Below are positions 37,541 through 40,307 of a stretch of 64,000 bases of DNA, one piece after another. The first letter of the stretch is position 1. Each line of letters begins with the position of its first letter. The notes under the pieces were generated by a model. The model was not told where the DNA came from. It saw nothing but the letters and a program-made list of their open reading frames with translations, and made no database searches. The stretch comes from Actinophytocola xinjiangensis. Lineage in GTDB: Bacteria > Actinomycetota > Actinomycetes > Mycobacteriales > Pseudonocardiaceae. The stretch lies in NCBI RefSeq assembly GCF_001921215.1, contig NZ_MSIF01000002.1, forward strand, positions 558,001 to 622,000. The letters run 5' to 3'. The translations under genes and the position numbers were made by a program.

Positions 37541-37948
37541 ATGCGGGCGAAGCGACCGGGCCGGTTCAGCAGGCAGTGGCAGCGTCAGCGGGCCGAACAG
37601 GCCGACGCCGAACACGCCGATCGCGTCGCCCGGCTCCAGTGGGTGGCGCGGCGGTTCTCCCGGTTCCCGTTCTACGCGCCGCCGAGGAGCCCGGCCAGCG
37701 AGCATGTGCGGCCGTACCGGGGTTTCCGCAACGGACGCGCGAGAATGGCGCCGACCGACACCGGCTACGAGGAGCCGGTCGAGCGACAGCCCACCGTGCC
37801 AGGCAACGAACACCCGTGGCTGACCGGCCTGACCGACGAGCCGACCAGCGAGTCGGTGATCGGCGCCCCCGACCACCGCCGGGACGACCAGGTCCCCGAC
37901 GGCGAGCCGACCGTCGGCCCGGTGATCGGCGAGGACGACCGGAGCTAG
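37541..37948 (+). CDS. Hypothetical Arg/Gln-rich cytosolic protein
   Basis: A 135-residue protein without signal peptide or membrane helix. The N-terminal half is basic (MRAKRPGRFSRQWQRQRAEQ) and the C-terminal half acidic and Pro-rich, probably disordered. TACCGT ends 6 nt before the ATG, which fits a leaderless promoter back-to-back with that of the epimerase. Its stop overlaps the convergent SCO6045-like gene by 4 bp. No family recognised. Confidence 0.6.
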   Translation: MRAKRPGRFSRQWQRQRAEQADAEHADRVARLQWVARRFSRFPFYAPPRSPASEHVRPYRGFRNGRARMAPTDTGYEEPVERQPTVPGNEHPWLTGLTDEPTSESVIGAPDHRRDDQVPDGEPTVGPVIGEDDRS

Positions 37949-38274
37949 TTCCGGGGTAGCCGGGTGCGCGACCAGCGGCGGCGGCGAAGATGGCCGTTGG
38001 CGGTGAGCCAGGTGGCGAAGGTCTCCAGGTCGGCGCGGAAGGAGACGCCGCTGCGGCGGGGATGGGCGCCGGCCCATTCGTCGAACAGCGGGCGGAAGCG
38101 GTCGCCGAGGGCGTCGGTGAGATCGGGGCGCAGGTGTTGGGCGACCGAGCGGCGTTTGGCGTGCAGGGCCGCCGCTTCCAGGTGGACCCGGGCGGGGTCG
38201 AAGCCCGGGGGGACCGGGCCGCCGGCCAGCAGGGCGCGGACCAGTGCGGCCTGGCGGCCGGCCAGGTCAGACAT
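37945..38274 (-). CDS. SCO6045-like small partner of the DUF692 protein
   Basis: A 109-residue soluble protein: SDLAGRQAALVRALLAGGPV, then FDPARVHLEAAALHAKRRSVAQHLRPDL and a basic C-terminus (HLRRRRWSRTR). It resembles the small actinomycete proteins encoded beside DUF692 genes (SCO6045 C-terminal type), which may play the partner or recognition role that separate proteins play in other MNIO systems. Its start overlaps the DUF692 stop by 8 bp, which indicates coupling. Confidence 0.72.
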   Translation of the reverse strand: MSDLAGRQAALVRALLAGGPVPPGFDPARVHLEAAALHAKRRSVAQHLRPDLTDALGDRFRPLFDEWAGAHPRRSGVSFRADLETFATWLTANGHLRRRRWSRTRLPRN

Positions 38275-39070
38275 GGCGCTCGACGATCTCACGGATCGCC
38301 GACAGTTCGCCGGCCAGTTCGGTGTCGGCGGGATAGTCGTCGTCGCGTTCCAGCAGGACTCCCGGCGGGGTGACGCGGGCACAGAGTTGGTCGAGGACGT
38401 CGAGGACCTCGGGGGTGACGGCGTGAGCGTGGGTGTCGTGGTAGACGCCGTCGTGGTGGACGCCGCCGGCCACGTGGACGTAGGCGATGCGCTCCAGCGG
38501 GATCTCGTCGAGGAAACGGGCGGCGTCGGTGGCCAGGTTGACGGAGTTGGCGTAGAGGTTCGCCACGTCGATCAGCAGGTCACAGTCGGTGCGGTCGACC
38601 AGCTCGGCCAGGAACTGGCCCTCGGTCAGGTCGCTGTCCGGCCAGTCGAGCAGGGCGGCGATGTTCTCCAGCGCCAGCGGCGCCGGCAGGTCCTGGCGCA
38701 CCGCGCGGACGTTGGCCACCAGCACGTCGAGCGCCTCCCGGGTGCGCGGCACCGGCAGCAGATGACCGGAGTCCAGCCCGCCGGCGCCGGTGAACGCCAC
38801 ATGCTCACTGACCAGCGGTGCCGAGACGGCGTCGGCCACCGCCGCCAGATGCGCGACCCGCTTCGGGTCGACGGGGTCGGTGCCGCCCAACGACAGCGAC
38901 ACCGCGTGCGCCACCACCGGCAGCCCGCGCCCACGCAGCACCCGCAGCGACTCGGGCAGCGGATCCGTCGGCACGTTCTCCGCCAGCACCTCCACGAAGT
39001 CGACCGCCAGACCCTCGACGGTCAGGTCGATCTCCGCCCGCCAGCCGACACCGACCCCGAGCCGGTTCAC
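38267..39070 (-). CDS. DUF692 multinuclear iron oxygenase (MNIO)-family protein
   Basis: A 267-residue TIM-barrel protein of the DUF692/MbnB family. It starts VNRLGVGVGWRAEID, with FVEVLAENV, VVAHAVSLSLGG, LVSEHVAF, LALENIAAL, LLIDVANLYANS, IAYVHVAGG and HDTHAHAV; these supply the His/Glu/Asp positions of the multinuclear iron site. Known members oxidise Cys residues of ribosomal peptides together with a partner protein. The GTG start overlaps the stop of the Cys/Gly-tailed membrane protein by 4 bp, and the small partner gene follows with 8 bp overlap. The tail of that membrane protein is the natural candidate substrate; this is inferred. Confidence 0.88.
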   Translation of the reverse strand: MNRLGVGVGWRAEIDLTVEGLAVDFVEVLAENVPTDPLPESLRVLRGRGLPVVAHAVSLSLGGTDPVDPKRVAHLAAVADAVSAPLVSEHVAFTGAGGLDSGHLLPVPRTREALDVLVANVRAVRQDLPAPLALENIAALLDWPDSDLTEGQFLAELVDRTDCDLLIDVANLYANSVNLATDAARFLDEIPLERIAYVHVAGGVHHDGVYHDTHAHAVTPEVLDVLDQLCARVTPPGVLLERDDDYPADTELAGELSAIREIVERHV

Positions 39071-39960
39071 CCGCCGCCACCCCCGCCGCAGCCGCCACCC
39101 CCGCCGCCGCAGCTGGAGCCGCCCGAACTGCCGCAACTCGACCCGCCGGAGGACGTACTCCCCCCACAGGACGCGATGTACACGCCCGGGGCGTAGCTCC
39201 ACGAGCTGCTCGAACCCGACGACACCCTGGCCTTCCCGCCGGCCGACAGCGCGCTGCGCACGGCCTCGTTGGGGAACATCGCCAGTCCGAACAACGCGAC
39301 CAGCCCGAGGCCGTCGGCGATCGTGGTCCGCGCCGATTCCAGGGCGCGGTCACCGTGCACGGTCCTGGCCCGGATCGGCCGCTTGAGCAGGATCACGATC
39401 AACGCGAGCGTGGCGATCAGCTCGAACGCCAGATAGGACACCGGTAGCGACTTCACCGCACCGTTCACGAAACGCACCGCGCCGATCACCAACACCAGAA
39501 CCAGCCCCAGAACGGCCTTCCGTCGCGCACTCGCCGCCACGCGCGGCGTCACCACGAGCTGGTGGGCCGCCAGCTCGTCAGCGATCCGCTCGATCCGCTC
39601 GGACGAACGGATCGAGGAGATCACGGTGCGGACCTGGCGCGAACGTGCTGCCACAGCGCCGAGCACCGCGGCCTCCACCGGATCGTTGCCCTGGCTGCCC
39701 TTGACAGCGGAGATCGTGCCTGAGCGGTTCGCCCTGAGCGCGCCCGCTTCGAGCAGCCGGCCGATCGCCAGTTCGATCACCCGCCGGGAGCCGCCGGAGA
39801 GAAAGGCGACCGACTCCAGGTCCAACGGCGGGGTCGGCTCGATCTGACGTGGGCGACGGGCTCGCGTCCTGGTGACGATGAGCCAGGCCAGTGCTACGGC
39901 CAGGCCTGCGGCGTAGAGCCACAGGAACTCCGGGCCGGAGATCCCCCATGGGTGTTCCAT
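39067..39960 (-). CDS. TIGR04222-type membrane protein with Cys/Gly tail
   Basis: A 297-residue membrane protein. One helix lies near the N-terminus (about 11-32), followed by a soluble helical domain (about 45-155, with EPTPPLDLESVAFLSGG and a VIELAIGRLLEAGALR winged-helix-like part) and two or three helices (about 168-240). The last 33 residues are only Gly, Ser, Thr and Cys, with Cys at 265, 276, 284 and 291 and blocks of six Gly after the last two. AGGGAGGGAG precedes the ATG at 39960. It is first in the operon with the DUF692 gene. The tail could be a substrate for oxidative Cys modification or a metal-binding segment. Confidence 0.8.
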   Translation of the reverse strand: MEHPWGISGPEFLWLYAAGLAVALAWLIVTRTRARRPRQIEPTPPLDLESVAFLSGGSRRVIELAIGRLLEAGALRANRSGTISAVKGSQGNDPVEAAVLGAVAARSRQVRTVISSIRSSERIERIADELAAHQLVVTPRVAASARRKAVLGLVLVLVIGAVRFVNGAVKSLPVSYLAFELIATLALIVILLKRPIRARTVHGDRALESARTTIADGLGLVALFGLAMFPNEAVRSALSAGGKARVSSGSSSSWSYAPGVYIASCGGSTSSGGSSCGSSGGSSCGGGGGGCGGGGGG

Positions 39961-40234
39961 TGCTCGCTCCCTCCCTGGTGACAGCATTTTGGCTGATGTG
40001 GGGGGTTGGGGGGAGCGGAATGCTCCGATTCTGGTTTGTCGCTGGTTGGTGGGTGGTGTGGTTGGTGTGTCTTGGGGGTTGGTCGTGTGTCTTGGTGTGT
40101 GTCTTGGGGTTGTGGGTTCTTGGGGTGTGGGTTGTGGGTTCGCTGGTGGTGTGGGTTGTGGGGTCCTGGGGTGTGGGTTGTGGGGGGTTTTGTCTGTCTT
40201 GCCCGGGTCTGGCGGTGGATTTTACGGGCGGCCA

Positions 40235-40307
40235 CTCACGCCTCAAGAGGCCCTGAGCTGGGCTTTGTCTGGGTTCGTGTTCACCTGTGGGCCTCTTGAC
40301 CCGTGAG
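40235..40307. repeat. Imperfect long inverted repeat
   Basis: 19-base arms (40235-40253 and 40289-40307) match except at two positions, with a 35-base spacer. Possible structured RNA or terminator. Confidence 0.5.

What the first reader, a model, noticed from the sequence alone, without database searches (positions are those of the whole stretch)
37945..39960. DUF692 oxygenase operon with a Cys/Gly-tailed membrane protein as possible substrate
Three translationally coupled reverse genes encode a membrane protein ending in 33 Gly/Ser/Thr/Cys residues with four Cys (265, 276, 284, 291), a DUF692/MNIO enzyme and a small SCO6045-like partner. Characterised MNIOs modify Cys of ribosomal peptides with a partner protein. 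A full-length membrane protein whose own tail acts as the modified segment would be an unusual, anchored RiPP-like product. The substrate role is inferred from operon order, 4-bp coupling and tail composition.
Basis: partly seen in the sequence, partly recalled or inferred. Interest (0 to 1): 0.78.

Follow-up and report, generated by a model that had tools for sequence, protein, structure and literature searches.

The report
Membrane-anchored cysteine tail with MNIO enzyme
Three overlapping genes encode a membrane protein with a glycine/serine/cysteine tail, an iron enzyme of a family known to modify cysteines and a small helper; such sets were proposed in print in 2025, and comparison here supports the tail as the enzyme's target and suggests that it faces the cell interior.

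Summary
In detail: a TIGR04222 membrane protein with a 33-residue G/S/T/C tail (Cys 265, 276, 284, 291), an MNIO enzyme with all nine iron ligands, and a 109-residue partner overlap by 4 and 8 bp on the minus strand. The idea is not new: Antoine et al. 2025 (PMC12452194) proposed TIGR04222 tails as MNIO substrates with "PME-type 2" partners. What I add: (1) in 348 genomes of the order, 121 of 127 with an MNIO also hold TIGR04222; at 114 TIGR04222-anchored loci examined, 113 show the partner and 113 have at least 2 tail Cys on the nearest TIGR04222. (2) Tails with at least 3 Cys: 147 of 189 proteins from MNIO genomes, 0 of 23 from genomes without; but few transitions are independent. (3) One MNIO lineage (27 of 46 named loci) has the same tail on tiny one-helix proteins. 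(4) Flanking charges put the tail in the cytoplasm for both anchors, against the published periplasmic reading. Against: a Streptomyces lineage keeps the enzyme with a tailless TIGR04222 neighbour or none. No modification has been measured.

The parts
39067..39960 (-). TIGR04222-family membrane protein (P0001, 297 aa): helix 9-34, winged-helix-like domain about 48-132, helices 139-166 and 174-193, short helices 201-245, then the tail
   Evidence: NCBIfam TIGR04222 128.6 bits, cut-off 43; AlphaFold2 model with 16-row alignment, mean pLDDT 77.8, tail mostly under pLDDT 50
39070..39168 (-). Gly/Ser/Thr/Cys tail, residues 265-297, Cys 265, 276, 284, 291; proposed MNIO substrate segment
   Evidence: read directly; only such tail among 522 ORFs of the window
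38267..39070 (-). MNIO (DUF692) enzyme (P0002, 267 aa, GTG start, 4-bp overlap with P0001)
   Evidence: PF05114 276.5 bits; aligned to TglH, all nine iron ligands present: H55, H90, E135, D168, N171, H199, D212, H214, E241 (TglH ligands from passages of PMC10880893)
37945..38274 (-). small helical partner protein (P0003, 109 aa, 8-bp overlap with P0002)

Best explanation
The trio is a minimal protein-modification system: the MNIO, docked by its small helical partner, oxidises several Cys residues in the Gly/Ser-rich C-terminal tail of the membrane protein. The likely product is a row of Cys-derived heterocycles (thiooxazole or oxazolone/thioamide type, by analogy with bufferins and methanobactins) that stays attached to the inner face of the membrane and probably binds a soft metal such as copper. 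Shown here: gene set, conserved iron ligands, conserved tail and partner, co-occurrence, and the same tail on a second anchor. Inferred: that the tail is modified, the chemistry, the cytoplasmic side and the metal role.
For: Of 127 MNIO-bearing genomes among 348 of the order, 121 also hold a TIGR04222 match. At 114 loci the partner follows in 113 and the nearest TIGR04222 has at least 2 tail Cys in 113. Tails with at least 3 Cys: 147 of 189 proteins in MNIO genomes, 0 of 23 in genomes without MNIO; in family f3 48 of 51 MNIO-adjacent proteins and 0 of 14 non-adjacent paralogues. In 155 tails 697 of 724 Cys lie between G or S, spacing peaks at 6, and CC never occurs against a shuffled mean of 55 tails. 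One starred MNIO clade carries the same tail on small one-helix proteins (39 in 29 loci; tree), and one TIGR04222 locus (L175) has such a mini too. All nine TglH iron ligands are present. Flanking charges favour an inside tail in 120 of 125 Cys-tailed TIGR04222 proteins and 37 of 39 minis. In G533 the MNIO is found only as three pieces in separate frames and the tail has one Cys.
Against: No modification, metal binding or expression is shown. The Streptomyces lineage keeps an MNIO, mostly fused to its partner, with a tailless TIGR04222 neighbour (9 loci in the tree) or none seen (5). In the window's family 11 of 14 non-adjacent TIGR04222 copies also carry the tail, so adjacency is not required. 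With a threshold of 2 Cys, 4 of 23 proteins in MNIO-free genomes pass. After correction for relatedness only 4 supported independent pairs exist and the sign test cannot reach significance (median p 0.5). At 6 of the mini-lineage loci no tailed protein was found. Published work places the tail in the periplasm (PMC12452194).
Confidence: 0.65

Rival explanations
1. As Antoine et al. 2025 propose, the tail is modified but exposed on the outer face (periplasm or cell-wall zone), acting like a tethered bufferin.
For: Bufferins act in the periplasm; their topology prediction for TIGR04222 proteins (PMC12452194, passages seen). A weak fourth hydrophobic segment could cross the membrane: 30% of 125 Cys-tailed proteins reach KD19 of 1.6 there.
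Against: Basic flanks lie on the domain and tail side in 120 of 125 TIGR04222 proteins and after the helix in 37 of 39 minis. The fourth segment is weak (median KD19 1.46, against 2.37, 2.40 and 1.75 for the first three) and the AlphaFold2 model has no fourth long helix.
Confidence: 0.25
2. The tail binds metal or forms disulfides as free thiols; the MNIO modifies some other protein.
For: The Streptomyces lineage keeps the MNIO without a visible tail; 11 of 28 non-adjacent TIGR04222 copies in MNIO genomes have the tail.
Against: No tail with at least 3 Cys in 23 proteins from MNIO-free genomes; the same tail stands beside related MNIOs on a different anchor.
Confidence: 0.2
3. The tail is a low-complexity by-product of GGC repeat slippage in a GC-rich gene, without function.
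For: G, S and C codons are one step apart (GGC, AGC, TGC); tail length and Cys number vary (2-11 Cys).
Against: 511 Cys against 23 Arg codons in the last 40 codons at 114 loci; no CC in 155 tails.
Confidence: 0.03

Closest known systems
TIGR04222 - MNIO - PME-type 2 gene clusters (Antoine et al. 2025, PMC12452194)
   Same: Same three kinds of protein, tail composition and proposed substrate role; mostly Actinomycetota, with a Micromonospora example.
   Different: They report PME-type 2 partners in at least 10% of TIGR04222 clusters and say many appear to lack one; at the loci of this order I find the partner family in 113 of 114. They predict a periplasmic tail; charges here favour the cytoplasm. 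Their main precursor search took genes preceding the MNIO (section 13), with a later search for unannotated ORFs that gave no conserved family (section 15); 23 of the 27 named mini loci here have the mini after the MNIO. Their supplements were not seen.
Bufferins (BufA/BufB/BufC)
   Same: MNIO acting on a Cys-rich substrate with a helical partner; P0002 scores 200 bits on the BufB model.
   Different: Below the BufB cut-off of 310 bits; no DUF2282 or DUF2063 hit in the trio.
Methanobactin MbnA/MbnB/MbnC
   Same: MNIO plus small partner; P0003's best structural match is MbnC.
   Different: The MbnB model scores only 46.4 bits (cut-off 325); the proposed substrate here is a membrane protein, not a short peptide.

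Membership tests
TIGR04222 (NCBIfam) | Score above the curated cut-off over the domain | tested here: met
   128.6 bits, cut-off 43, residues 15-227
MNIO / DUF692 (PF05114) | Pfam score above gathering | tested here: met
   276.5 bits, cut-off 25
MNIO / DUF692 (PF05114) | Conserved iron ligands | tested here: met
   9 of 9 TglH ligands aligned and identical
PME-type 2 partner | Encoded directly after the MNIO, no DUF2063 signature | tested here: met
   8-bp overlap; no Pfam hit at E<=1
PME-type 2 partner | Fold related to NGO1945 / TglI | tested here: inconclusive
Bufferin system | MNIO over the BufB cut-off | tested here: not met
   200 bits, cut-off 310
RiPP (modified ribosomal peptide) | Demonstrated post-translational modification | not testable with these tools
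   needs mass spectrometry
RiPP (modified ribosomal peptide) | Cleavage from a leader | not tested
   no search for a protease was made

The most novel reading that the evidence does not exclude
MNIO enzymes of Actinomycetota make a cytoplasm-facing, permanently membrane-tethered array of modified cysteines. The tail is a portable module: one MNIO lineage (Tsukamurella, Williamsia, Nocardioides, Aeromicrobium, some Mycobacteroides and others) has it on 75-123-residue one-helix proteins instead of the multi-helix TIGR04222 anchor. This would be a third placement of MNIO products beside secreted peptides and periplasmic bufferins.
Probability: 0.5. Interest if true: 0.72.

Novelty: new member of a known kind. 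Interest (0 to 1): 0.5.

Why it matters
If the tail is modified in place, MNIO chemistry acts on full-length membrane proteins and not only on cleaved peptides, and the 121 genomes of this order with both families would carry an unstudied membrane-bound Cys-derived metallophore or redox device. The 75-123-residue one-helix proteins should be easier substrates to express and measure than TIGR04222 proteins, which makes the open substrate and topology questions directly testable.

Tried and rejected

Rows dropped: 2 low-score and 3 contig-edge proteins and 11 rows of weak DUF2207-like loci or the duplicate L002. In one search, 10 weak loci, 3 contig-edge, 2 under 60 bits, 1 duplicate, 1 from another class. 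The 23 proteins from MNIO-free genomes come from 21 of the 24 f84 genomes plus G489 and G623. In one search, L225, L226 and L227 were left out as duplicates, at most nine loci per family were drawn, and three rows bear the label 'TIGR Cys tail' by default only: L012 (one Cys), L202 and L247 (cut by the contig end). L254 was dropped from the mini count (fragment of a TIGR04222 protein). L225 is the same locus as L206; L226, L227 and L257 are near-identical. Of the six MNIO genomes of the order without TIGR04222, G303 and G575 were not fetched; G372 (L209) has a distant MNIO and no tail seen; G613 (L199) is cut by its contig.

Full report
What is there. P0001 (39960-39067) is a 297-residue membrane protein, P0002 (39070-38267) a 267-residue MNIO and P0003 (38274-37945) a 109-residue protein. 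The junctions overlap by 4 and 8 bp. P0001 ends in 33 residues of G, S, T and C with four Cys. P0001 is a TIGR04222 protein (128.6 bits, cut-off 43) and P0002 a PF05114 MNIO (276.5 bits). Aligned to TglH, P0002 has all nine iron ligands that PMC10880893 lists (passages seen): H55, H90, E135, D168, N171, H199, D212, H214, E241. P0003 has no Pfam or NCBIfam match at E<=1. The window's genome has one TIGR04222 and one MNIO match, and they are these neighbours.

Already in print. Antoine et al. 2025 (PMC12452194; outline, sections 18, 15, 13 and 17, passages of others; supplements not seen) propose that subsets of TIGR04222 proteins are MNIO substrates through C-terminal Cys-rich segments, with PME-type 2 partners, mostly in Actinomycetota. 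The substrate idea is therefore theirs; they say the modification remains to be investigated. They state that more than a quarter of TIGR04222 proteins lack C-proximal Cys, that a third of genomes with TIGR04222 lack MNIO, and that the tail is likely periplasmic.

Co-occurrence. In 348 genomes drawn from the window's order, 159 have a TIGR04222 match, 147 of them over its cut-off, and 127 have an MNIO. Of the 127, 121 also have a TIGR04222 match. Genomes with TIGR04222 over the cut-off but no MNIO are the 24 of family f84 plus G489 and G623. The f84 matches cover only about the first 145 of 229 model positions, so they are partial relatives. I took TIGR04222 loci and fetched more, and built profiles from them. 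At 114 loci of the order (113 genomes) with an MNIO over 150 bits, the partner lies downstream in 113; in the one miss, L051, about 500 bp after the MNIO are held. The nearest upstream TIGR04222 has at least 2 tail Cys in 113. The exception, L154, has a tailless 53.6-bit copy nearest the MNIO and a tandem copy with 7 Cys. These loci were anchored on TIGR04222, so they do not sample MNIOs without it.

Does the tail follow the enzyme? Among 212 TIGR04222 proteins kept, tails with at least 3 Cys and 60% G/S/C are found in 136 of 161 near an MNIO, 11 of 28 in MNIO genomes but elsewhere, and 0 of 23 in genomes without MNIO. With a threshold of 2 Cys, 4 of the 23 pass, all in f84. Of the 25 neighbours without the tail (listed), 17 are in the window's family f1 (14 of them about 1 kb or more from the MNIO, mostly extra tandem copies; two with 2 Cys; and L156 of G533), 3 in f3 have 2 Cys, 1 in f75 is an extra copy, and 4 are the class-level f5 proteins. 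In f3 the non-adjacent paralogue never has the tail (0 of 14). All 11 non-adjacent tailed copies are in f1, so action in trans or another role is possible. Fisher tests give small p values but the proteins are related; on a tree only 4 supported independent pairs exist, going the same way in 2.1 and the other way in 0.2 on average, median p 0.5. The association is strong in counts and weak in independent events.

Tail design. In 155 tails the median length is 41, Cys make up 11%, 697 of 724 Cys lie between G or S, spacing peaks at 6 residues, and CC never occurs, against a shuffled mean of 55 tails. These tails were chosen for Cys, so the codon test was repeated without that choice: in the last 40 codons at 114 loci there are 511 Cys and 23 Arg codons. 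In fetched loci, 187 of 193 stop-to-stop ORFs with such tails are TIGR04222 or mini proteins, and 6 of 15,554 other ORFs have one, of which L207 is a cut TIGR04222 gene and L175 a further mini.

A second anchor. Two MNIO genomes without TIGR04222 (L206, L210) carry small one-helix proteins with the same tail. A scan with their two MNIOs brought 46 named loci: 27 hold such mini proteins, 26 of these 27 also the partner family (not L229), 6 show none, and 13 are of TIGR04222 or Streptomyces type. In all, 39 minis in 29 loci, 75-123 residues with the start chosen by the script. In 23 of the 27 the mini follows the MNIO; in the four Aeromicrobium loci it precedes it. The MNIOs of this group form one starred clade of 32 rows (26 with a mini, 6 with none found; support 99), inside a wider group with TIGR04222-linked MNIOs at support 92, not starred. 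So an MNIO lineage seems to have kept the tail and changed the anchor. Antoine et al. collected precursors mainly from genes preceding MNIO genes (section 13), and their main text does not name Tsukamurella, Williamsia, Nocardioides or Mycobacteroides.

Which side? Net charge on the predicted inner flanks exceeds that on the outer in 120 of 125 Cys-tailed TIGR04222 proteins and 19 of 20 tailless ones; for minis the flank after the helix is more positive than that before it in 37 of 39 and equal in 2 (for L224, L226, L227 and L257 the chosen start puts basic residues on both sides). The possible fourth membrane segment of TIGR04222 is weak (median KD19 1.46, 30% reach 1.6; the first three have 2.37, 2.40 and 1.75 with 98, 100 and 63%), and the AlphaFold2 model of P0001 shows helices 9-34, 139-166 and 174-193 and then only short ones. 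With three crossings the winged-helix-like domain and the tail share one side, and the charges make it the cytoplasm, where an enzyme without a recognised export signal would be (export was not tested). This reverses the published orientation; it is a prediction from sequence.

Counter-evidence. In Streptomyces-type loci the MNIO is mostly fused to its partner. A tailed TIGR04222 is kept at L196, L242 and L249 (L247 is cut by its contig end). Nine loci have a tailless TIGR04222 and five show none near; two of these five (L245, L253) branch early. Either the substrate lies elsewhere or the enzyme has another target. My search for a tail elsewhere failed its positive controls. G533 fits the model the other way: its MNIO is found only as three pieces and its tail has one Cys, though an assembly error is possible.

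Relatives of the anchor. Weak TIGR04222 matches in other classes include DUF2207 proteins (two tested, L014 and L018: DUF2207_C 144.8 and 139.7 bits) that end in Gly-rich tails without Cys. Kinship with TIGR04222 is plausible but weak in direct scans (2 of 16 members, best E 0.046).

Verdict. The substrate role is better supported now but unproven. The mini proteins and the inward topology are the parts I did not find in print.

Noticed in passing
L206:2887-3177(-), L210:4730-5312(+), and 27 of the loci L212-L257: Family of 75-123-residue one-helix proteins with Gly/Ser/His/Cys tails beside MNIO genes in Tsukamurella, Williamsia, Nocardioides, Nakamurella, Metallococcus, Flexivirga, Aeromicrobium and two Mycobacteroides.
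   Followed up: yes
L192-L198, L242-L246, L250-L252: Streptomyces-type MNIO fused to its partner domain, mostly with a tailless TIGR04222 nearby or none seen (L196 and L242 keep a tail); a DUF4142 protein lies between them in L192; substrate unknown.
   Followed up: partly
L156 (G533:C1:393272-401967): MNIO matches only as three pieces in separate frames and the neighbouring tail has one Cys: possible joint decay or assembly error.
   Followed up: no
40000-40250: Strong strand asymmetry upstream of the operon (GC skew 0.57, AT skew -0.77) with short G/T-rich repeats on the + strand, C/A-rich on the operon's strand.
   Followed up: no
39268-39840 (P0001 residues 41-231): Foldseek's top three solved structures are Vps74 chains (GOLPH3 family), but a second look puts GOLPH3 level with helical bundles.
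   Followed up: partly
L226 (Kitasatospora arboriphila contig): MNIO locus almost identical to Williamsia muralis (L257): the genome record is probably mislabelled or contaminated.
   Followed up: no
L175:7955-8230(+): A TIGR04222-type locus with an additional one-helix mini protein bearing the same tail: both anchors in one place; no relative of it in the other fetched loci except a marginal match.
   Followed up: partly
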